From contig NC_089851.1 of NCBI RefSeq assembly GCF_036373705.1, forward strand, positions 1,947,001 to 2,011,000: a stretch of 64,000 nucleotides of DNA, written 5' to 3'. The position numbers and the translations under genes are program-made. Under the pieces are notes generated by a model. It made no database searches. It worked only from the letters and a program-made list of their open reading frames with translations, and was not told the DNA's origin. The number at the start of each line of letters is the position of its first letter. The stretch's first letter is position 1. The DNA is from Amia ocellicauda. Lineage: Eukaryota > Chordata > Actinopteri > Amiiformes > Amiidae. Of this stretch, positions 2,809 through 64,000 are shown piece by piece.

Positions 2809-3392
2809 CTGAGGACACGTAGGAACATCTGTTACTGGACACCCTCATTAAAATCCACCCAGGGTCCTCAGAAGAGAGGCCGGTGAGTGTGAGTACACCG
2901 TACCAGTGAAACATCATATACAGGTCATTTTATATTTTGGTTGATTGTACGGGTCACTTGGATGAGAAATTAATTTCCCATGTGCTCAGAGTAATGAGTT
3001 TCTACAAACATTTTTCTCAAGCCATATTTGTCAAAACCAAAATACCCAACAAATGTATGTTTCATATATGGTAGAGATGTGTGAGTTGTATAAAGCCCAT
3101 TGGGCAAAATCAGCCATATATTTTATGTTTAAAGTATATTACAGATATTAACCTTCCCATATTGAAACTATTCTACCAGGACAGGTATGTTCTGTATAGG
3201 TGTGGTTCTAGCAGAGCCTCACAATGTTGCCAGAATAACCATGTTTGCTGGGATGCTTTGGGATTCACGTGAAGTTTTATCACATGCATAAATCTTTCTT
3301 TCATTCAAATGCTCCGCTACCAGAAAGATACCCCTTTTGACAGGTCAGCATCAGCCATGCTGTGCTGGTAATGACAATGTGTGTGTTCTTAC

Positions 3393-3719
3393 CATCCGTT
3401 ATGGTGAGGTGGAGATAATACCCATAATCTGCTGCGCTGACTATTTCTACTGCACACCAGTACCAGCCTTGGTCCTGCCATTTCAGATCCCTCATGGTCA
3501 CAGTGAACACATTCCCGGCGGTGTCGTCTGAGACTGAGGCTGTTTTGCTTCCTTCTTGGGGAGAGTTGGATTTCTTTACAGTAGAACAGAAAGCCCAGGA
3601 TGCTCCTCTACACCAGTATTTCACATGGCGTCTGTACTGCTGCAGGTACAGGCAGGGGATGCTGACCGATCCTCCTTTTAGTGCTGTAATCCTTTTGACT
3701 GCAGACAGGCTGATTACTC
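3393..3719 (-). CDS. CD300/pIgR-like receptor, first IgV exon (intact)
   Basis: This 327-nt exon has an acceptor at 3721-3720 and a GT donor at 3392-3391, phase 1 at both ends. It encodes one complete V-set domain: 'GGSVSIPCLY' (B-strand Cys), 'VKYWCRG..WAFC' (the extra cysteine pair of this family), 'DDTAGNVFTVTM', then 'DQGWYWCA' (F-strand Cys). These motifs are typical of the CD300/CMRF35-like, pIgR-like and related fish immune receptors, which are surface proteins on leukocytes. The leader exon fits at 7759-7726, and the next exon is the broken IgV at 2808-2514. No transmembrane exon is seen inside the window, so signalling type is unknown. Confidence 0.8.
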
Positions 3720-3825
3720 CTGCACCATGGATATAAGGACTCTGATGTGTACAGTAGTATGAATTTATTAGGTTTTTAAATGCATGTGCACACACACACA
3801 CACAAATAGAAATGCACACATGCAC

Positions 3826-8297: not shown

Positions 8298-9518
8298 CAC
8301 TCACCTAAAGGATTATTAGGAACACCTGTTCAATTTCTCATTAATGCAATTATCTAACCAACCAATCACATGGCAGTTGCTTCAATGCATTTAGGGGTGT
8401 GGTCCTGGTCAAGACAATCTCCTGAACTCCAAACTGAATGTCTGAATGGGAAAGAAAGGTGATTTAAGCAATTTTGAGCGTGGCATGGTTGTTGGTGCCA
8501 GACGGGCCGGTCTGAGTATTTCACAATCTGCTCAGTTACTGGGATTTTCACGCACAACCATTTCTAGGGTTTACAAAGAATGGTGTGAAAAGGGAAAAAC
8601 ATCCAGTATGCGGCAGTCCTGTGGGCGAAAATGCCTCGTTGATGCTAGAGGTCAGAGGAGAATGGGCCGACTGATTCAAGCTGATAGAAGAGCAACTGTG
8701 ACCGAAATAACCACTCGTTACAACCGAGGTATGCAGCAAAGCATTTGTGAAGCCACAACACGTACAACCTTGAGGCGGATGGGCTACAACAGCAGAAGAC
8801 CCCACCGGGTACCACTCATCTCCACTACAAATAGGAAAAAGAGGCTACAATTTGCACAAGCTCACCAAAATTGGACAGTTGAAGACTGGAAAAATGTTGC
8901 CTGGTCTGATGAGTCTCGATTTCTGTTGACACATTCAGATGGTCGAGTCAGAATTTGGCGTAAACAGAATGAGAACATGGATCCATCATGCCTTGTTACC
9001 ACTGTGCAGGCTGGTGGTGGTGGTGTAATGGTGTGGGGGATGTTTTCTTGGCACACTTTAGGCCCCTTAGTGCCAATTGGGCATCGTTTAAATGCCACGG
9101 CCTACCTGAGCATTGTTTCTGACCATGTCCATCCCTTTATGACCACCATGTACCCATCCTCTGATGGCTACTTCCAGCAGGATAATGCACCATGTCACAA
9201 AGGTCCAATCATTTCAAATTGGTTTCTTGAACATGACAATGAGTTCACTGTACTAAACTGGCCCCCACAGTCACCAGATCTCAACCCAATAGAGCATCTT
9301 TGGGATGTGGTGGAACGGGAGCTTCGTGCCCTGGATGTGCATCCCACAAATCTCCATCAACTGCAAGATGCTATCCTATCAATATGGGCCAACATTTCTA
9401 AAGAATGCTTTCAGCACCTTGTTGAATCAATGCCACGTAGAATTAAGGCAGTTCTGAAGGCGAAAGGGGGTCAAACACAGTATTAGTATGGTGTTCCTAA
9501 TAATCCTTTAGGTGAGTG
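8298..9518 (+). mobile_element. Intact Tc1-like element, copy 1 (1221 bp)
   Basis: Perfect 29-bp terminal inverted repeats ('cactcacctaaaggattatt' outward from both ends) flank a single uninterrupted transposase gene. TA dinucleotides bracket it (8296-8297 and 9519-9520), the standard Tc1/mariner target duplication. It has exactly the same length as copies 2 and 3 at 29273-30493 and 61406-62626. Confidence 0.95.
8446..9486 (+). CDS. Tc1-like transposase, copy 1 (346 aa)
   Basis: This is a full-length cut-and-paste transposase. An N-terminal bipartite helix-turn-helix DNA-binding region ('SISQSAQLLGFSRTTISRVY' at about residues 24-43) is followed by an RNase H-like catalytic core. The three acidic residues sit in 'WSDESRF' (about residue 149), 'FQQDNAPCHK' (about 240) and 'PDLNPIEHLWD' (about 276). 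The length is normal for Tc1 enzymes. Relative to copies 2 and 3 it has private changes (V for L in 'ATLTE', T for R in 'LLRHSD', P for R in 'HKGRIIS'). No stop or frameshift is present, so it may encode active protein. Confidence 0.95.
   Translation: MGKKGDLSNFERGMVVGARRAGLSISQSAQLLGFSRTTISRVYKEWCEKGKTSSMRQSCGRKCLVDARGQRRMGRLIQADRRATVTEITTRYNRGMQQSICEATTRTTLRRMGYNSRRPHRVPLISTTNRKKRLQFAQAHQNWTVEDWKNVAWSDESRFLLTHSDGRVRIWRKQNENMDPSCLVTTVQAGGGGVMVWGMFSWHTLGPLVPIGHRLNATAYLSIVSDHVHPFMTTMYPSSDGYFQQDNAPCHKGPIISNWFLEHDNEFTVLNWPPQSPDLNPIEHLWDVVERELRALDVHPTNLHQLQDAILSIWANISKECFQHLVESMPRRIKAVLKAKGGQTQY

Positions 9519-15300: not shown

Positions 15301-15329
<29 letters not shown>
15301..15329. repeat. 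(AC)n microsatellite
   Basis: An uninterrupted AC dinucleotide run of about 14 units. Confidence 0.95.
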
Positions 15330-15331
<2 letters not shown>

Positions 15332-15479
15332 GAGGTCCAGACAGACATACAGTAGTGTTAATCTCACGAGTGAAATTAATACTTGCATTTAATATAAGTG
15401 AATCAATTCAAAATGCAAATGTGTTCATCTTTAGTATCAAATGCATAACTGTTTGAAATGTTATCAGTACTGAATCAGC

Positions 15480-15700
15480 GAAAGCAGCGAATGAACTCGA
15501 GTTCACTTGAGTATGTTAGTTTCGCACCCGCACGGTCGGACTCATCAAAGGCGTTTGGGGAGTCTGCGCAGTGCGTCGCTTGCGGGACATGGTCCGAGAG
15601 AGGGCGTGGTCTGCGCACTGGAGAGGCTACCTGCTGAAGGTAAAGAAAAGAGAAAAGTTTCCCTTCTTTCTGACACCGACGAGCTATTACACAGAAAGGT
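15480..15700 (+). promoter_or_regulatory. Likely upstream promoter and noncoding exon 1 of the topoisomerase gene
   Basis: CpG content rises around 15520-15620 ('cgcacccgcacggtcgg', 'cagtgcgtcgcttgcggg'). Good donor sites follow at 15640 ('CTGAAG|gtaaag') and 15699 ('AGAAAG|gtaaag'). The first coding exon at 16456 begins directly after an acceptor ('ccatgtctcag'), so a separate upstream noncoding exon is required. This is the best candidate. No TATA box is evident, in keeping with a housekeeping promoter. Confidence 0.45.
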
Positions 15701-16473
15701 AAAGTATGGATTTGAATTGCAACATATTTTACTTTCAAACAACACTCGCAGTCTGAAGCACAGGGTCTTTAACCAACAGCGCAGCAGTTCATAGCAACGT
15801 GTTTCTTTGTGCTTCATCGCCTGTGAAGCGTGTGTGCGCGTCCTCTCACCCGTGCAGCTCTCCTCACTCACTGCTGCTGGCTGGGGTTTGAACGAAAGCG
15901 GAATTGAATTGATATAGTTCTGGAGGCCAGACTGATACACATGTGTGTTTATTATAATATAACAGTTTTTAATGAGAACCTACAATGTCGCTGTGATTTT
16001 GTGCGCTTGCATATTATTTTAACTATCGCTTTACGTTATGCTTAATGCGTTTGTCGTCGGACTGTAATTTGGTCGAAATAAGAAAAAAAAAAAAGTTAAA
16101 GTGGTTTACATTCGTGTTTCTGCATTTGTCTTGTACCCGTCCTGTAGCCCACATCCCTGCTATCACAGTTTTGCTCAGCGCAAGGTGCGTCTGCGTCGGC
16201 AGGGCTGCTCCTCTCCGACTGCGCACAGTGCGGGGCTGTGACCTGTATTTGTACAAGGACAATGCCCTGGCGTTAAAACCAATAACCATTTGTATCTGTA
16301 TGTGTATACATCATATTGTATATACGTATATAATTCATAGTGCAATACATAATCATTGCTTTTCAGACCATTGGAGACATGAGTGCATGTCTAGGTACAG
16401 GCCTGACTTGTTAGTTTTATTGGTCTCATATTAAACCTTTCTGTCCATGTCTCAGGGGTGTCTGAAAGGAGAG

Positions 16474-19400
16474 ATGGACGGGGAGAGAGGAGGCCACGAG
16501 ATGGCAGAGCTGAACGGAGACTCCCAGAGGAAGAGGGCTTCATCGGGAACAAACGGAGACAGGTGTGCCAGTGGCAGGTGTGGCCCCTCTAGGCCCCCTA
16601 CTTTGCTCGCTCACCAGAGCTGGCCGCCCCTGCCTGAGCTGCACACACAACTGGTTGAATTGATGAAAAGCCTAGTCTGGGTCCAGGTGTTTGTAAACTG
16701 ATTATTTGTGGTGAAGGATAAAGTGTGCTGGGTGGCGGCTCCCCCGGACCAGGACCAGCACTTCTGAAAGCATCTTCCATCAGTCGCTTGTTAAATACGT
16801 AATGCTGCTTTTGTTGATCTGCATATTTATCTCCTGTTGCCAGCAAACAGAACAAGGACTCATCCAAGACGAAGAGTAAACACAAACACAAGGATCATTC
16901 GATGGAGAAGCACAGCGACTCTAAGAAGGAGAAGGTACCACAGTACAGCAGTGTTGTGTTATCAGGAAGCTACTTTTCTTTCTTTTTTTAATGTAAAAAC
17001 TCTTTAATGCTGCAGGTGAAATCCTCCAGCCCAAACCTGCCCGTGAAACCCCTGCAGGAGCCCAAGGTCACCAGGTGAGTCCTGCCAGCACCAAGCTGCC
17101 TGCTGGGCAATGCAGGAAATGCATCCAGTAACACCGTGGGATATTGTGGTCGAAGGCCATGTTCATAACAACAAATTCAAGAAAAGGTGTCTTAACACGC
17201 GTGGGTCCTGAGCTGTATGTTTTGTTCCCGCCAGCTCTGAAAAGCCCCTATATCCGGATCTTGGGAACAGCAGGCTAGAACACGAGAGAGACCGAGCTGG
17301 AGTGGTGAGACGGCCCTGCCACACAAGATTATTTACATATATATACTTTTATTATCATTGATGCGGTCTCATTTCAGAAGAGGTGCATATTACATTTAAT
17401 AGATGTATTCACACATGGACTGGTCTCTGCAACTCATATGCTTGACCCAAGTATACACATATAAGTGGATAAATATAATTGAAGCTTTTAAGCAGATAAG
17501 GTTTAGGTTCTTAGTATTGCTTTGGTGAAAGTGTCCTGCATTTTGGTAAAAAAAAAAAAAGTCAATCTCATCCCTGTGAGACGTCAGGGGTCTAAGATAC
17601 TGCTGTACAATGTGCAAGATTTAGTAATGTGTCTTGGGTCTCTTCCTCCCTGCAGGAGAGGCACCCTGGGTCTCATGAAAAGTAAGTTGAAGCTGAGAAA
17701 CATTAAGAAGAAAGGCAAGAAAGAACAACATCCAACTTCATGTGGATTTAAATATTCAAATTGTATTTCCTTTTGTCAGTTATTCATCTTAACAACCACA
17801 TTCCTGAAAGTAAAAAATCTGATTAAGAACATCCACCTTTATTGTGGTTATTATTAGAATACATTTTATTTATTTAAATTGTAGGCTCATGTGACAGAAG
17901 CACCCAATGGTGTGTGTTGTGTTGCAGTGTGAAGAGGAGATCGGACTCGGTGGATCTGAATAACAACGTGTCCCCAGGGCGTGGGGGAGAGAAGCTCAGT
18001 GTCGGCCAGGCCACGCCACTGCAGCTCCATCAGCAACACGGCTCTGACAGGTCCGGTCACCCTGACACTGCGTTCTCCTGCTCAACACTCCTGCTTTCTC
18101 TTCACTCCGCTCCTCTTCATCCCTTGTCCTTTGCCACTATTTATCTTTATCCATCCATCTGCAGATTTCAGCACAAGGACAAGAAAATAAAAACTGAGCA
18201 TTCGTCACAGAACCACACAGATGGCGGCGAGGGGGACACCCTAACTAGCACAGGGCTGAAGAGTGACACCAATAACAACTCGGAGGAGGCTGTGGAGGAC
18301 AGGTGAGGGAGAGGAAGCTCAATAGGTGTCCATCTCATCACAACGAGCACGTGGAGCTGCTGTAAGAACATGAGATGATTGAAGGCCTTGGTTTGTATAA
18401 AGCCTCTGCGATGCTAGTGAAGAGCTGCATCTTAAACACAAGGAAGGTTTGCAATCTTCAGTTCTCCAAATGTTTTTGTTTCTTCTTCTTTCAGATCGGA
18501 GAGTAACGCAAAGAAAAACAAGGCCACCAGGGACAGAGATGTTAAAAAAGAGGTAATTTGTGTGAGTTTTGTGCATTAAAACCTTGAGACAGGATTTAAA
18601 CACTGACAGATACAGGTGTCTGTACAGGTAGAGATGGAGGCTTATACAGGTGTGTCATGGACATGCAGTCAACTGTGGGTTCATATAAGTACTGTGTTAA
18701 CTGTGATCGCATCTACTGAAATATCAGCATTGCTTTAAATTGAAAGACCATCAAACTGGTCTGTAGGGGAGACACCCCAGGTGAGTGTGACCTTTACAAA
18801 GCACTGTGGTCTTACTGACAACTGTGACCCCTTTTAAAATTGCAGAAAAGAAGCAGCAGAGAGGAAAACACAGGGAAGAAAGAGGAGGACGAGGAGCTGA
18901 AGAAGCCCAGAGAGAACAAGGAGTGGGAGGCAGAGAAGAGGCATACAAAAGAGGGGAAAGATAGAGGAAGAAAACAGGGCCAAGTGAAGGAGGAGAAAAA
19001 GCCAGGGAATAGAGGCAAAGAAAAGCCCACAGAGGAAACAACAAAAAGAAAACGCACAAAAGGAGGGGAGAATGAGGAAGGGACGCTTCAGAAGAAGAGG
19101 AAAAAAGAGAAGAAAGTGGAGGAAAACGAGAAGAAATCCAAGAAGGAGGAACGGGAGGAGAAGAAACAGCAGGAAGAGGCGACCAAGTGGAAGTGGTGAG
19201 GAGGCTCAGAGGCCTGCTGCTCAGTACAGGGAGGGAGGCTGCCGTTCTCAGCCCTGGCCCTGGAGGAGCCCGTCTCGGCTCTACACTGAACCCTTGACTG
19301 GACTGATGGTGATGCTCTTATCTGCCCCTGGTCAGACTGTCCTCAGCTCTGAAACCGGGGCAGAGCGGTCAGGTCAGTAGGTAACGACAACCGCAACGCC

Positions 19401-22400
19401 GGGGCTGGAGTGGAAGCCAGCGAGCCGACACAGGGAGGGCACTCCAGGACTGGGGCCGGGAGCCGCGGCTGTGAGGCTCAGTCTGCTGGCAGACAGCCGG
19501 CTCACAGGTGCTCAAACCAGGATACGCCATCGTAGATATAGATCGGTACATAGAGAGGGAAGGTTCGCTGTGTTGAGGTTTAAAAGTGGAGCAAGTTTAT
19601 CCCAAACTAGTTAATAATATAGATTAGAAAGCTGCACAGCAGTCTTCCTTCAGTCTTGTTTTAGTTAGCTGAAATCTACCCACAGCCCAAACTAGTGACA
19701 GATGCATTTTCTTTATTTAGACATTACATTCACAGCACTTGCATGTAGTCAAAAGCAACTCCTAAGTACATTTGCAACTTGGAACTCATTTTCAAGCGCT
19801 TGCTGCCACCTGTGGGTTTTATTCTTGAAATGTGCAACATGCACGCCAAACAGTCTACATCCAGTACATTCAAATATTTTTTAATGTCCAGGTACTTTAA
19901 GTAAAGACTAACTTTTTAAACTTTCTATTTTTAACGCTTTGAAATTGAGCCTTTGTGTCGATGACCGGTGTGACCGTCTTCTCTCTGGCACGCCGGCAGC
20001 GCTGTGCGTCTTTCCGCGGGGCGGAAGTAGGCGCTGCACAGGAAGCTGCGTGGGAAGTGAAAACGCTCTATTCTTCCCACGTGTGAGACGCGCTTGACTC
20101 GTCCTCGGGATTTGCTACCTGGGATGATCAGCTGTGGCGGCGCTGCGGCTCGATTGATCTGCGGTTCCCTGAAACTGAGCGCGAAGTCCGCTTTCTCTGT
20201 GCGTTTAGTACAGACCCTAAGATGCCCCGGGTCCGGCCTGCGGAGCCCAGTCAAGAAAGCGCGGAGGCTCGCAATAAGGTCACCGTGACGCTTTGCTATA
20301 GCAGTGATGATGAATGCAGTGTCTCGATTAAAAATAAGTGTAACGTTCTTTGAAAACGGCTCTATGTATTAAGTGTTTGCACTGGTTTTGTGACAGTTTC
20401 GCCCATCTACTGCGCAGCAAATCATATGTAGCCTGTGCCGGCTCTGCACGCTGAGCTGTAAAAGCCGAACGCAGTGACGCGGTGCGGGGCGGTGCGGGGC
20501 GGTGCGGGGCGGTCTCTGTGCACTGCATCTGTTTCACTGCAGGCTGTGAGATCAGCTCCCTGCACACCATTGACGTGTACTCAGTCTAATCAAATGCATG
20601 ACGCCAACGGTACTGCAGACCAGTCTGTTTAAATAAAGGTAATGCGTGTATTGTATCTATTTACTGACTGTAACAGGGGCGGGCCCAGGAGGACAGGTGT
20701 TCAGGTGTTTCCTTCCCAGGGTCCGAGCTTCAGAGCTCTGCTGGATATTGATTTACTATGTTCACTTCATATGTTTATCAAGGTTGAGCTATTTGAGCTA
20801 TACAAATCTGACTGTTAATGTCCTTGCGAGTTTTTTAGTTGCTTATTCCTCAGGTGTGCATACATTTCTCGTAGGGATGTTCAAGGTGCTTGTGTGGGGA
20901 GACATCTGTGTTGTTGTGTGTGTCCTGTACTGCTGTGCTCTGTGTGGAGTTTGTTTTTTCACCAGCTTGCTGTCTGTGTGCAGGTGGGAGGAAGGCCAGT
21001 CCTCCGATCGCATCAAGTGGAAGTTTCTTGAGCACAAAGGTCCTCTCTTCGCACCCGAGTACGAGCCGCTGCCAGAACATGTCAAGTTCTACTACGATGG
21101 TGAGATCCAAACCACAGCCTCCCCTCAGGAATCTGTTTTTATTCCATTTCTGTTCTGTACTCTATGGTCTGTTTTGGGAAATTGGTGTTTTCCACCCCCC
21201 TGCCATCTATTCCCGATGTTCCTGTGACAAACATTTCAGCTATGCTGTTACATTCACCTAGTTTATGTGCTCTGATTGTAATTGAGTTGTTAATCTATTG
21301 TATTGTGGAATATGCACAGAACTTGCATGGAAATCTGTGTGTATATTGTTTTTTAGTAACACATTTAAATTGAAATTTGATTTATGGTTGAACCCGCTAT
21401 AGTATTTTTTTATTTCCTTCTGCCATGTAGGGCCATAGTGTTCAGCTTCTCTGACTCCTCCAGGTGAATGTATTGATCCAGCTGCCTCTCCCTCCACAGG
21501 AAAGCCCTTCAAGCTCAGTTTGGAGGCAGAGGAAGTGGCCACGTTCTTCGGCAAGATGTTGGACCACGAGTACACCGACAAGGAGGTGTTTCGCAGTAAT
21601 TTCTTCGGGGACTGGCGAGAGGTGCGTCTCTTTATCAAAGTTACAGAATTATCGGAATTCCACACTGTCCAGTCGGGGCCTTTTCTCATTGGTTTTAACT
21701 AACTTATGAAAGCTTGAAAACAAAACAAACCTCCTGTAATAATTTAAGGAAGCATGTTAAAGCAACATTCATCACTATACTCATCCTCCTTAAAAGTGAT
21801 CCTAAGAACAAAGGTTTCCAAAGGAGTGGAGGCTGAGCCCTCTCCCTTGCTTGTTTGTGGGCTAGCGGTTGGCACCCACCCCCCGCACCCCTTGAAATAT
21901 CATGTTTCACCAGGAAATGACGCCCAGAGAGCGCAAGGTGATCACCGACCTGTCCAAGTGCGATTTCACGGAGATCCATAAATACTTTGCGGACAAGGTG
22001 GAGGAGAAGCGTGCGATGACCAAGGAGCAGAAGCAGGTGAGGCCAACGTCCGCGGGGCCTTGCGCTCCTGTCCGCCTCGGACCTGTTGGGTGGTCGAAGG
22101 CCGGTGGGCTGCAGGTCGTGGTTTTTTTTGTACTGGGAAAAGAGTGTCTGTGGAGGGACAGTGTCTGTGGGGACACTCGGTGAATCCAAAACAGGCTGAA
22201 TTAATGTGTCTGTGCTTCTTGCCCCACCCCAGGAGCTGAAGAAGGAGGCGGACAGGCTGACGGAGGAGTACGGATACTGCATCCTGGACGGGCACCGCGA
22301 GAAGATCGGCAACTTCAAGGTGGAGCCGCCCGGGCTGTTCCGGGGCCGCGGGAGCCACCCCAAGATGGGCAAGCTGAAGAAGAGGATCCAGCCTGAGGAC

Positions 22401-25400
22401 GTCATCATCAACTGCAGCCAGTAAGAGTGGCGGAGGGTGTTGGGTGGGTACTGGGCAGGGTGGAGGAGGGTTTGGGTTTTTGGTCTGCAGGGCAACGTAT
22501 CTGCAGTTGATGTTTTTGCTGCCTTTTTTGTTTTGTTTCACATTTGTCACACTGCACCTCTTTATAATTAAACTAATGGTGGTGGTGATAATGACAATGT
22601 TCTCAAGGTGCTGAAGGCCAAGTCAATCAGATCTATACACAGAAGGAGAAGTGCTCAGCGCAGAGAAACTTTGCTCTTCTCGGCGTGACACTCCAGTTTG
22701 AAATCGGTGCACTGACGCCGCTTCTGCTCTCGCCCCACAGGGACTCGAAGATCCCCATGCCTCCCGAGGGCCACCGCTGGAAGAAGGTTCAGCACGAGGG
22801 CACGGTGACCTGGCTGGCCTCCTGGGTGGAGAATGTGCAGAATGGCATCAAGTACATCATGCTCAACCCCAGCTCCAAACTCAAGGTGAGGAAAGGACGC
22901 CAGGCGTCTGAAAATAAAGTAAATTAATTAATTGAAGGTGCCATACAGCTGGTTAAAAGCAGCATTCAGAGTTAAGTGCTGTTTGTGTTAGCCATGGTCA
23001 TTGTATGACGTTTAAACAAGCAACACTTTGACAGGCTGCACAGGAAGCCTGGTCACGTCTTTCAGTCATGCGAAAGACACGGACCCCCGGAGGTGTATTT
23101 TCTTCTGTCACTGTCTGTCATCCTACAGGAGGTTTTCTCTCCTCTGTGCCCAGTGGTTTACATTTACATTGTTGTATCAATAGCAGTTTGATCTAGGATA
23201 GTGCCCCTCGCAAATTGGGCAGAGTGTGAAGTGTGAAGCACTCTGCCCACTTTGCGAGGGGCACTATCCTAGATCAAACTGGATTGATCTAGCGTGGCTG
23301 TGTGTCTGTGCAGGGGGAGAAGGACTGGAAGAAGTACGAGGTGGCTCGCAAGCTGAAGGACCGGGTGGACATGATCCGGCGGCAGTACCGGGATGACTGG
23401 AAGTCTCGGGAGATGAAGAGGAGGCAGAGAGGCGTGGCCACTTACTTCATAGACAAGGTACCTCACTTCCTGCGGTGCTGCCCAATCAGAATGCATCTTA
23501 TGTTTGTGTCTCGCAATGCTGCATCTTTACACTGGTATTTCTGTGTGTATGGAAAAGTACACACAGACACACTGATATGTAACTGTGGCCCTCTGTTAGC
23601 GCTAGTGTGTTTCTCTGTGCCTGTGCTCCTCTCCCAGACCTACTCTTTGTGTGTGTGTGTGTGTGTGTGTAGCTGGCCCTGAGAGCGGGCAATGAGAAGG
23701 AGGAGGGCGAGACTGCTGACACAGTGGGCTGCTGCTCCCTGCGGGTTGAGCACATCAAGCTGCACCGCCAGATGGATGGAGAGGACTATGTGGTCGAGTT
23801 TGACTTCCTGGGCAAGGACTCCATCCGCTACTACAACAAAGTGCCTGTGGAGAAACCGGTGAGCTGCCCTCGGCTAGTCTTCTGGAAGAGGGGTGGGGTG
23901 GGATTTGTGAGATGGGGAGACTGAATGGACTGATTTTCTGCTTCACTCACAACCTCCTTCTGATCATCAGGTTTGTGTTGAGTGACACTTCACCAGTATT
24001 ACAGCCAGCTAATATCTTATCTTTGTTGTGCAGTTTTCTTTTGATTATTAACGCCATGCTCTCCTCTATGTTGGCATCTAGAGGTAGTCACCAATTACTT
24101 AAGTGCCCTTTGACCTCGTCTCTCACTTAGTGCATGGAGGGTCACGTGGGTTAGAGGAAAATCCCAGGGCAGCATCAGTCAGTCACTGGGAGTTTCCCTG
24201 TGCTCAGTGGAAGTCCGATGTCTGGGTGTAAACTGCTTCTCTCACAGAAGAGGGGTGGTTTAGTTTTATTATTATTGGTTGCTTCCTGTTGATGATACAA
24301 GTGCTATTCTGACCTCACTTCTTCACGCAGGTTTTCAAAAATCTGAAGCTGTTCATGGAAAACAAGAACCCGGATGATGACTTGTTTGACAGAATCAATG
24401 TGAGCACACATCCTGCACCTGCTTCCTTGTCTCTCTGGCTCAGCATGAAAGCCTTTGCCTAATGTTCAGTCTGAGGAGTTGTCCCTCTTGTTTCCAGTCC
24501 AGTGTTCCCCTGCAGAGCTCTGCTCCTCTGCTGTCGTTTGATTTAATGTTCATTTTGTTGAGATTTTTGCCTTTATCTATCATCCCCCAGACTGTCTTCT
24601 TAAACAAGTCGCTGCAGGAGTCGATGGACGGTCTGACCGCTAAAGTGTTCAGGACCTACAACGCTTCCTTCACCCTGCAGGAGCAGCTCAACAAGCTGAC
24701 GGACCGTACGTGGGTTTTGTCTATGATCTACTTCAGTTTTCTCTGAGGACACGCTGTCCCTCCGCTGTCCTCACTGCGGGGTCAAGCTACATAAACAAAC
24801 AATTAAACTCAGTATCTCGACTAAACCATAAAGCCATAAAGGGTCCATCGAGCAGCCTTCTGTTCCCATAATAAAATCTGTTTGCACATAACTTACTCCG
24901 GATCCTTACTAGCGTCTCCTTATTATCTGCGGTATAATTGCTATGTACAATTTGGACATTCATTACTCTGGATCCTTAAAAGTTGTGTCTTGATTTAAGT
25001 AGCACTAGCTGTCCATGCGAGGACTCGATGGGAGACCCGGCCTTCTGAGATTCCTGCAGCCCTGGGTTCTTGCACCAGGTTACAGGCAGGAGCCCAGAAG
25101 AGATGAGGGAGGCCTAGTTCACCCCTCACTCATATTTCTAATGGTCTCTCTCTCCCCCATCTCGTGCCACAGCTGACCAGTCTGTGGCGGAGAAGCTCCT
25201 GTCGTACAACCGGGCCAACAGGGCCGTGGCCATCCTTTGTAACCACCAGCGGGCAGCACCCAAGACATTCGAGAAATCGATGCAGAACATCCAGGAGAAG
25301 GTGAAGAAGTCGTGGGGGGTGGGGTGGGCTGGAATGTAAAATTAATAATTGAGAAGTACAGGAATGCAGTTGTATCCAAATGGCCCCGTCCTACCATGGG

Positions 25401-25612
25401 CTCGAGGGCTGAGCGCTTTTCTCGTTTCGTGCAGATCGCGCAGAAGCAGCAGCAGCTGGAGGCAGCAAAACAGAAGCTGAAAGAGGCCCAGGACCATTAC
25501 AAGAAATACAGAGATGAGAAATCGAGAAAGTGAGGCTGGGTATCGCCACCTAATCAAATACAGACCTTGATAATTTTAAATCTAGGGAAAGTGTGTGTGA
25601 GAGTGTGAGAGT

Positions 25613-25655
<43 letters not shown>

Positions 25656-26313
25656 GAGGTATAGATTTAAACTGTACCCTTTCAGGCCTAATACAGTGGG
25701 AAATGGTTTGTAGAAATGGTGCCCTCGCGGTGCCTGTGGTGGTTAATGGTGCTGCGGGGGGGCTGTGCTTTTGCCCAGGTTGGTGGAGAAGCTGGAGAAG
25801 ATGGTGGAGAGGCTGGAGGAGCAGCTGAAGAAGCTCATCGTCCAGGCAACGGACCGGGAGGAGAACAAACAGATCGCCTTGGGGACGTCCAAACTCAACT
25901 ACCTCGACCCACGTATCACCGTGGCCTGGTAACTCGCCTTTAAACAAGCTTTGACCGACCTGCTCACAGGGAACAGCCAAGCTGAGAAAAAAAACTCCAG
26001 GGGCACTGTCAAAATATCCTGGATAATTTCTACATTTTACGAAAAATTTTCCTTGGACCTCGAATGTTATTTGTTTTTTACTTATCGCAGAAATATAATT
26101 TAGAAAGGACATTGGAAGTGGTTTAATTTCTAAGGTGTATGGTTTTAATGTAAAGAAAAAGATGCTCATGTCTTATTTAAACAGGACTTTTTGGCATTTT
26201 GTGTTCACAGGTGTAAGAAGTACGGAGTCCCCATCGAGAAGGTGTACAACAAGACCCAGAGAGACAAGTTTGCCTGGGCCATCCACATGACCGACGAGGA
26301 GTTCCAGTTCTGA
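16474..26313 (+). CDS. top1mt: Type IB DNA topoisomerase, TOP1MT-like, long nuclear-type form (22 coding exons)
   Basis: The enzyme relaxes supercoils through a 3'-phosphotyrosine intermediate. Phase-consistent exons end at: 16562, 16934 (from 16844), 17074 (17016), 17304 (17235), 17681 (17656), 18050 (17928), 18302 (18165), 18552 (18495), 19195 (18846), 21099 (20984), 21621 (21500), 22036 (21914), 22420 (22233), 22885 (22741), 23457 (23314), 23858 (23673), 24399 (24331), 24705 (24591), 25300 (25173), 25529 (25435), 25928 (25779), 26313 (26211). That is 2688 nt, 895 aa. The first nine exons give a Lys/Glu-rich region with '[14 protein letters not shown]' and basic clusters, ending 'TKWKW' as in nuclear TOP1. 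The last 13 exons are the catalytic body: '[20 protein letters not shown]' (Arg), '[10 protein letters not shown]' (Lys), '[17 protein letters not shown]' (Arg, His), a coiled linker, and '[11 protein letters not shown]' (nucleophilic Tyr). Details such as '[16 protein letters not shown]' favour the TOP1MT paralogue over TOP1. The start is the first in-frame ATG after the 16456 acceptor. Confidence 0.9.
19960..20123 (+). promoter_or_regulatory. Internal GC-rich promoter candidate for the mitochondrial form
   Basis: A CpG-rich island sits inside an otherwise A/T-rich intron of the topoisomerase gene. It contains an ETS/NRF-2-type site 'GCGGAAGT' (20021-20028) and a CACGTG E-box (20078-20083). 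It lies directly upstream of the ATG at 20124. Three tandem 'ggtgcggggc' units (20481-20510), each making a GGGGCGG Sp1-type box, lie just beyond the exon. ETS/NRF-2 sites are common in promoters of nuclear genes for mitochondrial proteins. No TATA box is seen. Confidence 0.55.
20124..20278 (+). CDS. top1mt: Alternative first exon: mitochondrial presequence of TOP1MT
   Basis: From ATG 20124 the frame encodes 51 residues plus two bases (phase 2), ending at 'AATAAG|gtcacc'. The peptide ('[20 protein letters not shown]', later 'VKKARRLAI') has ten Arg/Lys, many Ala/Ser/Leu and no Asp or Glu, as mitochondrial targeting sequences do. Phase 2 is exactly what the exon at 20984 accepts, giving '..LAIR-WEEGQ', the point where human TOP1MT joins its presequence to the shared body. 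The product would be 612 residues (human TOP1MT has 601) from 1 + 13 coding exons, the same count as the mammalian gene. Weak points: the donor hexamer 'gtcacc' is imperfect, and there is no transcript evidence. Confidence 0.7.
23184..23281. repeat. 43-bp-arm hairpin in a topoisomerase intron
   Basis: Positions 23184-23226 pair with 23239-23281 with a single mismatch, leaving a 12-nt loop ('tgaagtgtgaag'). It lies about 30 bp upstream of the exon at 23314, so the transcript would fold into a long stem just before the acceptor. It could be a foldback MITE remnant or a microRNA-like precursor; the sequence alone does not decide. Confidence 0.85.
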
Positions 26314-28929: not shown

Positions 28930-31900
28930 ATGGAGTTTGTCCATCTCCTTCTTCTCTGGGCTGCTCTCCCTGGTAAGCAACCAACAAACCCGATTGCAGA
29001 CATATAGATCCTATGGTTTTACGTGAGTGATGTACTGGAGTCTGTTGAGTTATAGACATTGTTGAAATGGAGTAAAATATGCTGCAGTGCATTGAACAAA
29101 GCAAAGGTACTTAGCCAAGTTACAAAACAATGTATGTTTAAGAAAAAGACCCATTGATTGGTGGTGCAGGTAGGAATTGAGTTTGTTCTCTGTAAACAGA
29201 GAACGTGAGTAATGAGTCTTTAAGAAGATACTTTCCTGCAAATTGCATAATAATATACAAACTAATAAAATACACTCACCTAAAGGATTATTAGGAACAC
29301 CTGCTCAATTTCTCATTAATGCAATTATCTAACCAACCAATCACATGGCAGTTGCTTCAATGCATTTAGGGGTGTGGTCCTGGTCAAGACAATCTCCTGA
29401 ACTCCAAACTGAATGTCTGAATGGGAAAGAAAGGTGATTTAAGCAATTTTGAGCGTGGCATGGTTGTTGGTGCCAGATGGGCCGGTCTGAGTATTTCACA
29501 ATCTGCTCAGTTACTGGGATTTTCACGCACAACCATTTCTAGGGTTTACAAAGAATGGTGTGAAAAGGGAAAAACATCCAGTATGCGGCAGTCCTGTGGG
29601 CGAAAATGCCTTGTTGATGCTAGAGGTCAGAGGAGAATGGGCCGACTGATTCAAGCTGATAGAAGAGCAACTTTGACTGAAATAACCACTCGTTACAACC
29701 GAGGTATGCAGCAAACCATTTGTGAAGCCACAACACGTACAACCTTGAGGCGGATGGGCTACAACAGCAGAAGACCCCACCGGGTACCACTCATCTCCAC
29801 TACAAATAGGAAAAAGAGGCTACAATTTGCACAAGCTCACCAAAATTGGACAGTTGAAGACTGGAAAAATGTTGCCTGGTCTGATGAGTCTCGATTTCTG
29901 TTGAGACATTCAGATGGTAGAGTCAGAATTTGGCGTAAACAGAATGAGAACATGGATCCATCATGCCTTGTTACCACTGTGCAGGCTGCTGGTGGTGGTG
30001 TAATGGTGTGGGGGATGTTTTCTTGGCACACTTTAGGCCCCTTAGTGCCAATTGGGCATCGTTTAAATGCCACGGCCTACCTGAGCATTGTTTCTGACCA
30101 TGTCCATCCCTTTATGACCACCATGTACCCATCCTCTGATGGCTACTTCCAGCAGGATAATGCACCATGTCACAAAGGTCGAATCATTTCAAATTGGTTT
30201 CTTGAACATGACAATGAGTTCACTGTACTAAACTGGCCCCCACAGTCACCAGATCTCAACCCAATAGAGCATCTTTGGGATGTGGTGGAACGGGAGCTTC
30301 GTGCCCTGGATGTGCATCCCACAAATCTCCATCAACTGCAAGATGCTATCCTATCAATATGGGCCAACATTTCTAAAGAATGCTTTCAGCACCTTGTTGA
30401 ATCAATGCCACGTAGAATTAAGGCAGTTCTGAAGGCGAAAGGGGGTCAAACACAGTATTAGTATGGTGTTCCTAATAATCCTTTAGGTGAGTGTAGTTCT
30501 TCAAACACAGAACACCTAACTGCTGCTCCTCACATTGTTATGACAAATCTTGAATGTTCTCTCCTCACAGGATCTGACAGCCTGACGTGTGTGTCAGAAG
30601 TAATGGGACGAAAGGGAGAGTCAGTCAGCGTTGTGTGTCACTATGAGCTCCAGTACAGAGACAATGTGAAATACTTCTGTAAAGGGTATTACTGGAGGAG
30701 CTGCAGCCCTGTGATACAGACAGACTCTCACACAGCTGGAGAGAAAGTGTCAATCAGGGAGCAGAAAACTCTGGGAATATTCACCTTCACAATGCGACAC
30801 CTGCAGAAGAAGGATGAAGGCTGGTACTGGTGTGCTCTTAAAACACAGCAAGATTACATTGAAATTACTTATCTCTATCTCAGAGTGGATGAAGGTAAAG
30901 CTCGATTTATGCAATGTGTTTTCTAACAGCAGTCACTGCTCTGTATAGAGGGATGGGTTTGCCTGCTTCTGCAGTGCAAGTGCAGATCCTCTCAGTGAGA
31001 CACGGGGACATTTTCACTGCTGAGCAGCACTGATACAGCCGTGATGCAGTTCTGTATTAACGGCCAGCGATGTCTAATAATTAAAGCAACAATAAACCAG
31101 CACCATGTTCTGCTGCTCTGTGTTGGTCATTTTGGGTGCATGAAGAATATTAGCATACATGTTTTGTATGAGATCAGTTTCATGACAAAATGACATGAAA
31201 ATAACTTTTCCTGATAGATCTGTGTCAGCCATCATTCATTTTTATTTTTTATGGAAACACTTTTTTACATACTGTATTTAACATTTCCTATAGTTATCCT
31301 GCAGTTATATGCACAACATATTAATATTGCATATATAGCCTATTGAACACCAGTAACTGAGGCATAGCAATCCATTTACAATGCAGGTGAATTGAGGGGT
31401 CTACAGTAAGTTCAGTTCAGCTACATTTCAGTTTTACTCTTGCAACTAAACAAAACCAACAAGCCCAGAAACGTCCGGTAATTTCCTGGTGAAACACAGA
31501 GCACACTTCAACCACATCTCTTGGTGTGCAGTTTCCCCATTCTCAATCCTAATTCACATTTCAGACTTTTTCTTTACTTTCATTGTAAATTCAGAGATGC
31601 TCCTTAGGTATGCCAGTGATCATCACAGCAATCATAGGAACTTGATCATCTGTACTACATAATCTACTAAGTGTATCAACCTAAGTAATTGGAAACCTCT
31701 GAAATGATCAGTTTACAGTAATCCTGAACCTGTGTATGCAGCCCTGAGAGAATGGCATATTAATGATGTCTTTGCTGATAGATTGAGGTATTTATTGATA
31801 ACAATACCATTGAGATACTGTATATTGCTATTGAGTGGTTACTTGGCCATTCTTTAAAACAATGTTCACAGAGACAGACTATTGTACCCATACATTACTT

Positions 31901-32868
31901 TAAAAGAAAGTGTCAAATCCACCAGAAGCTTTTCCATTCACCAAACACTAACTGTTATTGCTTCTCTTCACAGGGGATTATGATCTGTCAATCAACAGTC
32001 CCACTAACCTGTTTACTGGTCAGAAAGGCGGCTCAGTCAGTGTCTCCTGTCGATATAATCAAAAATACACAAGCAATGTGAAATACTGGTGCAGAGGGAG
32101 AGCCTGGAAATCCTGTCTGGAGATAATAAGATCAGAGTCTCTCCAGTCACACAGCAACAGAGTGTCAATTGAGGACGATACAAGACAGAGAGTATTCACT
32201 GTGACTGTGAGCAGGCTGGAGAAGACAGACTCAGACTGGTACTGGTGTGCCATAGAGAGAGGAGGAGCTGTTGATGAAGGAGTCACTGTTTACATCACTG
32301 TATCTGATGGTAAGAAAGTGACGTCTTTGTGCTGAGCTGTAATTGCCCATTAGGTGTCTACAGGTGGGAATGACCAGGAAGTGACACAGCGTACAAACTG
32401 CACAACAGCCTGACACAATCAAGAGCTCATAAGAAAAGTTACTTTAAGTTGAAAAATAAATCCTATATCAAGCAGGTTATGGGCTCATAAAAGTTACTTT
32501 AGTTGTTAAGTTAAATAATTGTTTTAATGAAACAGAATATTTATAATTTTACATAACATTTCATAATGTGGTAAACTGTATATCATCAAATGTCTATAGT
32601 GTCTCACTGGCACATAGAAACATTGCTCCTCCATCAAGATAGATGGATATTTATATATTATTCAGTCTGTCTATTTATTGTTTCTTCAGCAATAAAAACA
32701 ACACCATGCCCAACAACAGCCACCACAGCCCTCCCCGCCCCAGTGCCCACTGCAGGCAGCACAAGGACCCCCAGAGCTGCAGACAGCACCTCCACAGACG
32801 GATGCTCTGGAGGGGTTGAATCAGGCAGCCGAGAGCCAGTCGTTCTCAGAGCCTTCTGCACTGCGTAG
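28930..32868 (+). CDS. Two-IgV CD300/pIgR-like receptor, truncated (no membrane span)
   Basis: Exons: leader 28930-28972 (MEFVHLLLLWAALPG), IgV1 30571-30894, IgV2 31974-32309, stalk 32690-32868. All internal junctions are phase 1. IgV1 carries 'SVSVVCHYELQYRDNVKYFC' and 'DEGWYWCA'; IgV2 carries 'SVSVSCRYNQKYTSNVKYWC' and 'DSDWYWCA'. Both have the extra cysteine pair of this family. The Thr/Pro/Ala stalk matches the stalk exon of the receptor at 42611 up to about 32803, then diverges and hits TAG at 32866-32868. No transmembrane or tail exon follows; a DIRS element begins about 40 bp later. As read, it would be a secreted 293-residue protein, or a pseudogene cut by rearrangement. An intact Tc1 element sits in intron 1. 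Confidence 0.75.
29273..30493 (+). mobile_element. Intact Tc1-like element, copy 2 (1221 bp)
   Basis: The termini and length are the same as copy 1, with TA target duplications at 29271-29272 and 30494-30495. It sits in intron 1 of the receptor gene, in the same orientation, about 80 bp before the IgV1 exon, and does not disturb the splice sites. Confidence 0.95.
29421..30461 (+). CDS. Tc1-like transposase, copy 2 (346 aa)
   Basis: An uninterrupted transposase differing from copies 1 and 3 by a handful of residues (W for R in 'GARRAG', T for S in 'MQQSICE', A for G in 'VQAGGGGV'). The helix-turn-helix region and the DDE motifs ('WSDESRF', 'FQQDNAPCHK', 'PDLNPIEHLWD') are all kept. The A for G change lies in a glycine-rich segment before the second Asp and might affect activity. 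Confidence 0.95.
   Translation: MGKKGDLSNFERGMVVGARWAGLSISQSAQLLGFSRTTISRVYKEWCEKGKTSSMRQSCGRKCLVDARGQRRMGRLIQADRRATLTEITTRYNRGMQQTICEATTRTTLRRMGYNSRRPHRVPLISTTNRKKRLQFAQAHQNWTVEDWKNVAWSDESRFLLRHSDGRVRIWRKQNENMDPSCLVTTVQAAGGGVMVWGMFSWHTLGPLVPIGHRLNATAYLSIVSDHVHPFMTTMYPSSDGYFQQDNAPCHKGRIISNWFLEHDNEFTVLNWPPQSPDLNPIEHLWDVVERELRALDVHPTNLHQLQDAILSIWANISKECFQHLVESMPRRIKAVLKAKGGQTQY
30895..31973. other. Intron between the two IgV exons, nothing else seen
   Basis: A/T-rich DNA without recognisable repeats or exons. The matching intron of the receptor at 39.7-41.9 kb is longer because it has gained an ATT microsatellite, a family A repeat and a solo LTR. Confidence 0.5.
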
Positions 32869-36640: not shown

Positions 36641-36660
36641 GTTTTACGCTTTAATGCTAC

Positions 36661-37131
36661 GTGGATTCACCAGAACAAAACAAGGTTCCGCACCAAAGAC
36701 TGATCCTCAAATTGGAAGCTGCAGGCATTCAGGGTAATGTAAGTAGATGGATTATGAACTGGTTAATGTCTAGGAAACAGAGGGTGTCGATTAGAGGAGT
36801 CGCTTCTAACTGGAGTGAGGTTGTTAATGGAGTTCCACAGGGATCAGTACTAGGGCCTGTGCTTTTTCTAAACTATATTAATGATCTGGACTCTGGGATA
36901 GTTAGCAAACTTGTCAAATTTGCAGATGATACTAAAATAGGCAGCTCAGCAGATATAGTCTCGACAGCACAGGCTATTCAGAGGGACTTAGATAATATTC
37001 AGTTGTCGGCCGACACCTGGCAGATTAAATTCAATATGGACAAGTGCAAGGTGTTCAATACAATTAATACAAATGTCCACCATAATACCACTCTGGGACG
37101 AATACAGGACAGAGCAGGGAGCAGGGGGTAG
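36661..37131 (+). pseudogene. CR1-like LINE reverse-transcriptase fragment
   Basis: The open stretch encodes RT palm motifs: 'SEVVNGVPQGSVLGPVLFLN', 'YINDLDSG', 'KLVKFADDTKIGSSAD' (the catalytic FADD box) and 'WQIKFNMDKCKV'. This pattern is typical of CR1/Jockey-type LINEs in vertebrates. It begins and ends abruptly, with neither the endonuclease nor the C-terminal region, so it is a fragment, although the frame itself is open for about 150 codons. Confidence 0.85.
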
Positions 37132-38850: not shown

Positions 38851-40076
38851 AAGGAGGTGAATTGTAGAATAGTACTCTTGGAATTACGTGCAGCATGAAC
38901 GTTACAATTAATAATAATTCGTGAACAATGATCAATTAATGCTAAAATATTTGTAAATATTCCTGTCTACATCATTTGAAATAACCACTGTGCTGCACTG
39001 TTTGTATGTGCAGGGTAAAATAACTAGGTACTTTAATAATGAATACATGTGTGCCATGCTTTTATTATAATACAATACATCATGATGGGTTATGTGATGC
39101 TGGTGAGACACTTGGTTTCTAGGTCTCAGCAAAATAAGTTACAGATGTCGTGATGTCTGATCTATATATGATTGATTGGTTATGCACAGCACCTTAATTG
39201 ACGTAGCTGGAAGTGGGTTGAGAATCAGTGAATAGTCGACTGAGTTAGCTCTGTGGATTGACTGTTATACCCTGTCTTGGATTTATAGATGAAGTGTTCA
39301 AACCGGAACCCCTGCTTCCTGGCATCTCACTTCACAACAGAAAACTAGAAAAAACAGTAAAACAATGTGTCTTTAAAAGCTGTTCTCTCCTCACAGGATC
39401 TGACAGCCTGACGTGTGTGTCAGAAGTAATGGGACGAAAGGGAGGGTCAGTCAGCGTTGTGTGTCACTATGAGCTCCAGTACAGAGACCATGTGAAATAC
39501 TTCTGTAAAGGGTATTACTGGAGTAGCTGCAGCCCTGTGATACAGACAGACTCTCACACAGCTGGAGAGAAAGTGTCAATCAGGGAGCAGAAAACTCAGG
39601 GAAGATTCACCTTCACAATGCGACACCTGCAGAAGAAGGACGAAGGCTGGTACTGGTGTGCCATAAAAAGCAGATGGACAAGAATGTATCATAAATGCAT
39701 TTCTCTCTATTTGAGAGTGGATGAAGGTAAAGCTCAATTTATTCAACACATTAAATTAACTTTGTTTGCTATAAAGACCAATTGATACACATCGAAAGAA
39801 GTCGCCCACTTATATCCTTATCGATAGCAGCATTACTTTCTATTTCTCTTTTAACTTTCTCTTCCATCTGAATTGAAAACAGTAATTTATTGCTGCAGAG
39901 TCCCAGTTGCTCAAAAAGCTGGTCTAACTTGTCAGTGTTGGCCTAAACCTGCAGTGTCATAGACCCTGTTTTAAAATGCACTGATTTGAATGGAAACCTG
40001 CTTCAGATAAATATATATAATTTTAATGCAAAATGCGGATAATTCATAAAGTTATGGTCCCGTTCTCAATTTCACA

Positions 40077-56329: not shown

Positions 56330-58130
56330 CCGCTTGTCTTCTGAAGAAAGACAGAGGAGGTTCCAGCAACGGCTCTGTATGTACTGCAGGCCCAGTTCTT
56401 GCCAGCTCCACCCACCCCTGCCCATGCCTAGATCCGACCCTGATGTACTGCGGTCAGTCCGGTCATTTCAGATGGTCCTGTCCTGTCCATCCCAACACAC
56501 ATCGAGAGTCCACTGCTGTCCACACCCGTTGAGTTTCCATCTGTGTACCAGAGCCTGGTAGCAGTGTTCAGTAAAACCCTGACCTCCTGTCTACCTCCCC
56601 ATCGCCCGTGGGATTGCGCCACTGATCTGCTGTCGGGTACCACTCCTCCTAGGGGGCGCATATATCCTCTTTCTCTCCCAGAGTCCCATGGAGGATTACG
56701 TGAAGGAAGCCCTGGAGCTGGGCATTATTTGACCGTCAGCATCACCTGCTGCATCAAGCTTCTTTTTCGTGGCCAAGAAGGATGGAGGACTTCGGCCATG
56801 TATTGATGATAGAGGTCTAAATGCAAACGCCATCAAATATCCATACCCGTTGCTCTTGGTGCCCACTGCCCTGGAACAAGTTCGAGGAGCCTGATACTTC
56901 ACTAAGCTGGATCTGTGCAGCGCTTATAACCTGATCAGAATCCGAGAGGGCGATGAGTGTAAGACAGCCTTCATCACTCAGATCGAATATAACAAGTATC
57001 TGGTGACACCCTTCGGTCTGGCGAATGCCACATTCCACGCTTTCGTTAATGAGGTGCTAAATCACTTTGTTATAACCTATATAGATGATACATTAATTTA
57101 TTCCCCAACCTTGTCCAAGCACGTTTCTCATGTACACCAAATTCTCCAGTGTCTGCTAAAAAATTAACTTTTCATCAAGGGTGAAAAATGTGAATTCCAC
57201 CGGCAGTGTATAGCATTTCTGGGATACATCATTGATGCTGCAGGCATCCACATGAATCCAGACAAAATCCAAGCCATCACAGAGTGGCCACAGCCTTCAA
57301 GAAGTTTTCTCAGCTTTGCCAATTTCTACCAGCGCTTCATTCGTAATTACAGCACCATTGCCTAGACTCTCACTTCCCTTCTCCGAGGAGCTGCACGGTC
57401 TCTTTCGTTAACCTATCAACGCTTTTCATCTCCTCAAGACAGCTTTCACCTCGGCTCCGATCTTGAAACATCTTGATCCCTCTCTCCCTTTCCTGGTAGA
57501 GGTCAATGCATTGGAATCCAGAGTGGACGCAGTGCTATCCCAACGTCACAGTCTGCCCCCCAAACTCTATCCATGCACATTATTTTCCCGGAAACTCTCT
57601 TCCGCAGAAAGAAATGATGATATCGGGAATCAGGAACTCCTGGCAATGAAATTGGCACTGAAGGAATGGCGGCAATGGCTGGAGGGTTCTACACATCCCT
57701 TCCTAGTCCTAACGGACCACTGCAATTTGGAATATATGCAATCGGTGAAGTGTCTCAACCACGTCAGGCTAGATGGGCTCTGTTCTTTACACAGCTTCAG
57801 TTTCATCTCACCAACCCGGATCAAAGAACACAAAAGCAGACGCCCTCTCCCGACAGTTTGACAGTCATTCCATTCCCTTCTCCGCGGAACCCATCCTACC
57901 TACCACCTACATAGTGGCACCTATACACTGGAATATTATGGACCAGATCCATCAAGCACTCACCACAGAATCAGCCCTGTCTACCTGCCCAGTCAATCGC
58001 ACGTATGTACCCATCTCAGTACGCCCTCAGTTGCTTGACTGGTTTCACTCGTCCCCTGCCTCAGGTCATCCCTGTTTAATACGTAACCTGAATATGCAAC
58101 AAAGCACCTCACCTTCCCACCTTATAAATG
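56330..58130 (+). pseudogene. Ty3/Gypsy retrotransposon gag-pol remnant
   Basis: In order on the plus strand: a split gag zinc knuckle (CMYC at about 56380, [10 protein letters not shown] at about 56450), a gap where protease should be, RT fragments ('VAKKDGGL' type at about 56770, '[18 protein letters not shown]', 'YIDDTLIYS' at about 57080, 'KCEFH' and 'FLGYII'), then RNase H ('[20 protein letters not shown]', '[20 protein letters not shown]', 'EYMQSVK'). A short integrase-proximal segment ('SSPASGHP') ends near 58130. Several stops and frame shifts are present (for example about 57163, 57363 and 57474). No LTRs are seen, so it is a truncated, inactive copy. The catalytic box is YIDD. Confidence 0.85.
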
Positions 58131-62626: not shown

Positions 62627-62639
62627 TGTATATATATAT

Positions 62640-63480: not shown

Positions 63481-63489
63481 TTTCCTTTT

Positions 63490-63793: not shown

Positions 63794-63816
63794 ACGCCAG
63801 GTACCTGTGACATCAG

Positions 63817-64000
63817 CCCTTCATCACTTCAGCCCTTCATCACTTCAGCCCTTCAGCCCTTCATCACTTCATCACTTCAGCCCTTCAGCACTTCAGCCCT
63901 TCATCACTTCAGCCCTTCAGCCCTTCATCACTTCAGCCCTTCATCACTTCAGCACTTCATCACTTCAGCCCTTCAGCCCTTCATCACTTCAGCCCTTCAT
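63817..64000. repeat. Minisatellite of 'cttcagccctt/catcacttcag' units
   Basis: The last 180 bp are built from two short words, 'cagccctt' and 'catcactt', alternating irregularly and running off the window edge. It starts about 20 bp after the candidate donor of the first exon. Confidence 0.9.

What the first reader, a model, noticed from the sequence alone, without database searches (positions are those of the whole stretch)
16456..26313. One topoisomerase IB gene with both a nuclear N-terminal exon set and a mitochondrial first exon
The sequence shows nine phase-compatible exons encoding a Lys/Glu-rich TOP1-type N-terminal region ending 'TKWKW' in phase 2 at 19195. It also shows a separate ATG exon (20124-20278) with ten basic and no acidic residues, again ending in phase 2. 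Either can splice to the exon at 20984, which opens the 13-exon catalytic body. Known for the family: mammals split these roles between two genes, TOP1 (nuclear) and TOP1MT (14 exons, presequence plus the same 13 exons). The body here looks TOP1MT-like. Inference: this locus keeps, or regained, both targeting forms through alternative promoters, an intermediate state in paralogue subfunctionalisation.
Basis: partly seen in the sequence, partly recalled or inferred. Interest (0 to 1): 0.92.

Follow-up and report, generated by a model that had tools for sequence, protein, structure and literature searches.

The report
Dual nuclear/mitochondrial topoisomerase gene
In this fish (bowfin) the gene known as the mitochondrial topoisomerase TOP1MT also carries an upstream set of exons for a long, nuclear-type version of the same enzyme, and database relatives suggest that this two-in-one gene is widespread in jawed vertebrates and that people and mice may simply have lost one half.

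Summary
The anatomy is confirmed. Nine phase-compatible exons (ATG 16474 to 19195), or one ATG exon (20124-20278), can precede the same 13-exon body (20984-26313), giving 895 or 612 residues. The window is bowfin, Amia calva (503 of 503 residues identical to a bowfin protein). The body groups with TOP1MT, not TOP1; 12 of 12 catalytic or drug-site residues checked are kept. CpG is undepleted at both expected promoters. Wallaby and platypus show both forms with identical bodies. Of the listed rows, 0 of 45 primate and 0 of 4 rodent rows have it (hand count). Best reading: an old two-promoter gene making a nuclear-type and a mitochondrial enzyme, the long half probably lost in primates and rodents. 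Bowfin transcripts, nuclear location and mitochondrial import are inferred, not shown.

The parts
15301..16450 (+). expected promoter region of the long form; CpG undepleted, GC only 0.43, candidate untranslated-exon donors at 15639 and 15698
   Evidence: 14 of the top 40 of 1270 CpG o/e windows; GC; donors; start site not shown
16456..16562 (+). N exon 1, coding from ATG 16474
   Evidence: GT-AG, phase
16844..16934 (+). N exon 2
   Evidence: weak donor
17016..17074 (+). N exon 3
17235..17304 (+). N exon 4
17656..17681 (+). N exon 5 (26 bases)
17928..18050 (+). N exon 6
18165..18302 (+). N exon 7
18495..18552 (+). N exon 8
18846..19195 (+). N exon 9, Lys/Glu-rich, ends KWKW, phase 2
   Evidence: same junction in relatives
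19651..20700 (+). expected promoter region of the mitochondrial form, CpG undepleted
   Evidence: 12 of the top 40 of 1270 CpG o/e windows; start site not shown
20124..20278 (+). mitochondrial-type first exon, 51 residues, 10 basic, 0 acidic, phase 2
   Evidence: weak donor
20984..21099 (+). body exon 1, shared acceptor of both forms
21500..21621 (+). body exon 2
21914..22036 (+). body exon 3
22233..22420 (+). body exon 4
22741..22885 (+). body exon 5
23314..23457 (+). body exon 6
23673..23858 (+). body exon 7
24331..24399 (+). body exon 8
24591..24705 (+). body exon 9
25173..25300 (+). body exon 10
25435..25529 (+). body exon 11
25779..25928 (+). body exon 12 (active-site Tyr)
26211..26313 (+). 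body exon 13, ends at TGA 26311-26313

Best explanation
This is the bowfin TOP1MT gene, and it is a dual-product gene. Transcripts from an upstream promoter splice nine charged N-terminal exons to the 13-exon body and make an 895-residue TOP1-like enzyme, probably nuclear. Transcripts from a second promoter, inside the intron before the body, start with a basic presequence exon and make a 612-residue enzyme, probably mitochondrial. The two first-exon sets compete for the acceptor at 20984. The arrangement is old and shared across jawed vertebrates; primates and rodents probably lost the long half separately. Shown: exons, phases, single intact catalytic body, grouping with TOP1MT, undepleted CpG at both starts, and annotated long and short forms in relatives. 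Inferred: use of both promoters in bowfin, nuclear import, mitochondrial import, and loss (instead of missing annotation) in primates and rodents.
For: Both models open, GT-AG and in phase. Body groups with 45 other TOP1MT rows apart from 18 TOP1 rows, SH-aLRT 100, and with gar at 95. 12 of 12 catalytic or drug-site residues kept. Gar long form 63% identical over 99%; bowfin-gar N-terminal score reached by 0 of 500 shuffles. CpG peaks at both starts. 96 of 196 TOP1MT-class proteins have the W-K/R-W junction. Wallaby and platypus long and short forms share 560 of 560 body residues. Contigs too short to hold the introns carry long (P0097, P0056) and short (P0068) forms, which I infer to be transcripts. 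85 of 85 long N-termini of at least 100 residues hold NLS-like basic clusters.
Against: No bowfin RNA was available. The 20278 donor is weak. The presequence is not unusually amphipathic. NLS-like clusters are expected in any Lys-rich stretch. The upstream CpG stretch has GC 0.43 and misses the usual island criterion. The bowfin N-terminus shows no sequence kinship beyond composition with sturgeon, shark, frog, turtle, wallaby or donkey long forms. Database long forms are mostly automatic models.
Confidence: 0.78

Rival explanations
1. The nine N exons are a relic: open and in phase but no longer used, so bowfin makes only the mitochondrial form.
For: No bowfin transcript seen. The N-terminus diverges fast; outside ray-finned fish no kinship was detected.
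Against: Nine exons totalling 334 codons are free of stops and frameshifts, align with gar, eel, catfish and Salvelinus N-termini beyond 200 of 200 shuffles each, and have their own CpG peak.
Confidence: 0.07
2. The mitochondrial exon at 20124 is spurious or mis-bounded: only the long form is made, or the real presequence exon has other ends.
For: Weak donor with a same-phase competitor at 20230; ordinary amphipathic moment; an acceptor-like CAG before 20214 inside the exon.
Against: The only stretch of 273 with that charge; sits in the strongest CpG peak beside the gene; short forms with basic presequences at the same junction occur in sharks, tarpons, sturgeon, amphibians, turtle, birds, marsupials and primates; similarity to two shark presequences (1 and 2 of 500 shuffles, of 25 comparisons).
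Confidence: 0.1
3. Both forms are made, but the long form is not a nuclear enzyme (cytosolic, regulatory or unstable).
For: Localisation untested; long TOP1MT N-termini run from 48 to 839 residues against 199 to 288 in the 13 TOP1 rows compared, with no detectable kinship between them.
Against: NLS-like basic clusters in 85 of 85; the KWKW-WEE junction of nuclear TOP1 is kept.
Confidence: 0.15

Closest known systems
TOP1MT, vertebrate mitochondrial topoisomerase IB (human 601 aa)
   Same: Same paralogue by tree, same 13-exon body, a short basic first exon ending before the W of the body
   Different: Described as short and exclusively mitochondrial (PMC10081982; PMC6514783 passages); here nine further exons give a long TOP1-type form
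TOP1, nuclear topoisomerase IB
   Same: Long charged N-terminus ending KWKW before WEE, same catalytic body
   Different: Different paralogue; N-terminus of another length and without detectable sequence kinship
UNG1/UNG2, one gene with two transcription starts for mitochondrial and nuclear forms
   Same: Works alike: two starts, exclusive N-termini, one catalytic body (PMC6651865, passages)
   Different: Unrelated enzyme; localisation is established for UNG and only inferred here

Membership tests
TOP1MT | 13-exon type IB catalytic body | tested here: met
TOP1MT | groups with TOP1MT and not TOP1 | tested here: met
   46 against 18 rows, SH-aLRT 100, quick search, root unsure
TOP1MT | short basic presequence exon joined to the body | tested here: met
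   sequence only; weak donor
TOP1MT | import into mitochondria | not testable with these tools
   no localisation data
TOP1MT | lacks the long N-terminal region (as in the human description) | tested here: not met
   nine N exons in phase; also in 96 of 196 TOP1MT-class proteins, so the feature does not define the gene
TOP1 (nuclear) | groups with TOP1 | tested here: not met
TOP1 (nuclear) | long charged N-terminus ending KWKW | tested here: met
Two-promoter nuclear/mitochondrial genes (UNG type) | two transcription starts with two first exons sharing one body | tested here: inconclusive
   sequence and two CpG peaks, no start-site data
Two-promoter nuclear/mitochondrial genes (UNG type) | products in two compartments | not testable with these tools
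   NLS-like clusters and basic presequence only

The most novel reading that the evidence does not exclude
Most jawed vertebrates have a second nuclear topoisomerase IB, made from the TOP1MT locus, which human and mouse work could not see. In Xenopus this long form (P0072, 1110 aa, 127.8 kDa) could be the oocyte-specific topoisomerase I of about 165 kDa reported around 1990 (recalled, not read; I do not know that it was ever assigned to a gene). If so, the long half is a maternal or germline nuclear enzyme, and its loss in primates and rodents changed how eggs handle DNA supercoiling.
Probability: 0.3. Interest if true: 0.85.

Novelty: new variant of a known kind. Interest (0 to 1): 0.64.

Why it matters
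Reviews describe TOP1MT as short, exclusively mitochondrial and a clean case of one paralogue per compartment (PMC6514783 passages; PMC10081982). If the dual gene is general, that picture is a derived state of the mammals studied most. Rates of evolution and knock-outs of TOP1MT in fish, frog or chicken would have to be reread, because they touch a second, nuclear-type enzyme too. It would also show a compartment split by alternative first exons lasting since the jawed-vertebrate ancestor, instead of being a short passage on the way to two genes.

Tried and rejected
Tandem duplicate (a separate truncated TOP1 upstream of TOP1MT): rejected. tblastn of the body finds one copy in the window, and nothing between 19195 and 20984 beyond a chance match at E 6.5 on the other strand; N exon 9 ends in the phase that the body needs, and relatives are annotated as one protein.

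Composite transcripts: three automatic models (P0205, P0008, P0075) carry presequence-like residues between KWKW and the body. In bowfin an acceptor-like CAG precedes 20214 inside the 20124 exon, but joining 19195 to it gives TGA at the junction, so that composite is not open here.

Kinship of long TOP1MT N-termini with TOP1 N-termini: not found. Scores to four TOP1 N-termini were reached by 135, 66, 8 and 25 of 200 block shuffles; a profile comparison aligned one column, with a score that 1 of 40 column-shuffled controls exceeded, so it says nothing.

Amphipathic-helix support for the presequence: none. Rfam: no match in the window.

Papers on a long TOP1MT form: none recognised in the listings (open-licence papers only, capped listings; several titles on TOP1MT were not opened). 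The 2004 exon-motif paper, the 2009 adaptation paper and a 1996 Xenopus TOP1 paper are not held; a 2007 paper on alternative splicing of human TOP1mt was seen only as a reference.

A separate bowfin TOP1 was not among the listed rows; each lists only the best 120, so this says nothing about absence. The window's whole genome could not be searched.
Full report
Observation. I rebuilt both gene models from the sequence. The long model has nine exons, coding from ATG 16474 to 19195, then 13 exons from 20984 to 26313; the short model has one exon, 20124-20278, before the same 13. All introns are GT-AG and all phases agree, giving 895 and 612 residues. The body matches human TOP1 over all 560 residues; the long form holds three Pfam domains of the family. 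The residues at the places of R488, K532, R590, H632 and Y723 and of seven drug-resistance sites are kept, 12 of 12 checked (site list as in PMC10081982).

Species. A partial protein from Amia calva is identical to the window's body over its 503 residues (P0003), so the window is bowfin or very close to it. That record is named TOP1, which the tree contradicts.

Which paralogue. In a tree of 65 bodies (64 vertebrate rows and one long-branched firefly row), chosen from the 274 proteins held plus the window, 46 TOP1MT and 18 TOP1 rows lie on two sides of one branch with SH-aLRT 100; bowfin pairs with the gar long form at 95. It was a quick search without bootstraps and the root is unsure, so it shows two separate sets, not which came first. 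Gar has both a TOP1 (P0215, 759 aa) and a long TOP1MT (P0001, 911 aa).

Generality. Three searches each listed the best 120 of 4501, 6285 and 7876 proteins that passed; 274 different proteins were then held. By best match of the body, 196 are TOP1MT-class, 77 TOP1-class and 1 neither. Of the 196, 96 end W-K-W or W-R-W just before the body, 86 have another junction, 8 start at the W and 6 start inside the body. Rows with at least 100 residues ahead of such a junction were 10 of 17 for cartilaginous fish, 2 of 4 for holosteans and sturgeons, 29 of 36 for teleosts, 9 of 12 for amphibians, 7 of 12 for turtles and crocodilians, 5 of 7 for squamates, and 5 of 9 for monotremes and marsupials. I assigned these groups by hand from the names; birds (which include long forms such as turkey P0009) and rows without a species name were left out. 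Of the ten rows named for placental mammals other than primates and rodents, five have the junction (donkey, colugo, tamandua, pig, black rhinoceros), against 0 of 45 primate and 0 of 4 rodent rows (hand count; at least four of the primate rows lack the junction region). These are best-scoring rows and no census, so losses in primates and rodents are likely, not proven.

Both forms from one gene. Of the seven same-species pairs compared, two others, basking shark P0202/P0063 and crested ibis P0040/P0033, have identical bodies but both members are W-K-W forms. The other three do not show the point: arowana P0020/P0088 agreed at 409 of 559 positions and pig P0171/P0166 at 480 of 557 in an ungapped count, which gaps disturb, and Narcine P0237 has a shortened body. 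Horn and bamboo sharks show short forms with basic presequences. Records on contigs too short to hold the introns join a long N-terminus to the body (P0097, 1399 aa, contig at most 7582 bases; P0056, 772 aa, 2617 bases) or a presequence to the body (P0068, 593 aa, 2219 bases). I infer that these are spliced transcripts; processed gene copies are not excluded.

Promoters. Of 1270 windows of 500 bp ranked by CpG observed/expected, 26 of the top 40 start at 15301-15951 or 19651-20201, upstream of the first N exon and around the mitochondrial exon; the other 14 start at 48801 and 62551-63401. The second stretch meets the usual island criterion over 19851-20750. The first does not: its CpG is undepleted but its GC is 0.43. 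N exon 1 starts with an acceptor, so an untranslated exon further up is expected; donors at 15639 and 15698 are candidates.

What is old and what is not shown. The bowfin N-terminus scores above all of 200 block shuffles against gar, eel, channel catfish and Salvelinus; 2 of 200 reach the Paramormyrops score. Sturgeon (97 of 200), basking shark (141), sawfish (194), two frogs (72, 82), turtle (19), wallaby (137) and donkey (141) do not stand out. The presequence resembles two shark presequences (shared TLRC; 1 and 2 of 500 shuffles) and one frog and emu (2 and 1 of 500), among 25 comparisons. So the claim that the dual gene goes back to the jawed-vertebrate ancestor rests on the same gene, the same junction and the same two kinds of N-terminus in sharks and bony vertebrates, not on alignable N-terminal sequence.

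Mechanism. Two starts feed one acceptor at 20984. The long product keeps the KWKW that precedes the W of the body, as nuclear TOP1 does; the short product has a basic presequence ending in R there. Of 63 TOP1MT-class rows with other junctions and 25-65 residues ahead, 49 have R before the W, 10 G and 4 W. From memory, these tryptophans of human TOP1 affect strand rotation and drug response, so the two forms may differ in more than address; this is inference. The arrangement works like UNG, where two transcription starts give nuclear and mitochondrial N-termini (PMC6651865, passages).

Literature. The paper on TOP1 and TOP1MT evolution in chordates (PMC10081982; parts 1-4 of 5 read, and a term search) calls the TOP1MT N-terminus much shorter and the enzyme exclusively mitochondrial; 'isoform' does not occur in its main text. 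A review says in passages that Top1mt is the only topoisomerase exclusively in mitochondria and lacks most of the N-terminal extension (PMC6514783). I recognised no paper on the long form in the listings. Public databases already hold the long forms, mostly as automatic models named mitochondrial isoform X1 and the like, so the data are public and only the reading seems new in the papers that I could search. The Xenopus oocyte enzyme of about 165 kDa is recalled; brought nothing on it.

Verdict. By descent the gene is TOP1MT; what is unusual is that the published description of TOP1MT does not fit many of the relatives seen here.

Noticed in passing
8446-9486 (+), 29421-30461 (+), 61438-62478 (-): Three uninterrupted 346-residue Tc1-type transposase frames (Pfam on the first), 340-341 of 346 residues alike: a recently spread family.
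   Followed up: partly
3301-3825 (-), 30462-30926 (+), 31952-32335 (+), 39249-39785 (+), 41806-42234 (+): Five frames with immunoglobulin V-set domains around the gene; they look like CD300/pIgR-like receptor genes (recalled resemblance).
   Followed up: partly
23181-23295: A near-perfect palindrome that folds into a long hairpin (-85 kcal/mol) in the intron between body exons 5 and 6, possibly a small mobile element.
   Followed up: partly
20200-20214: An acceptor-like stretch ending CAG inside the mitochondrial exon, just where three other species' automatic models resume after KWKW; it may mark an old exon boundary in the presequence.
   Followed up: partly
62551-63900: A further CpG-undepleted stretch next to a tandem array of 16/24/40-base units at 63813-64000.
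   Followed up: no
P0003: The bowfin database protein of this gene is partial and named TOP1, although its body groups with TOP1MT.
   Followed up: yes
36655-37131 (+), 57412-57861 (+): Reverse transcriptase and RNase H fragments of retroelements.
   Followed up: no
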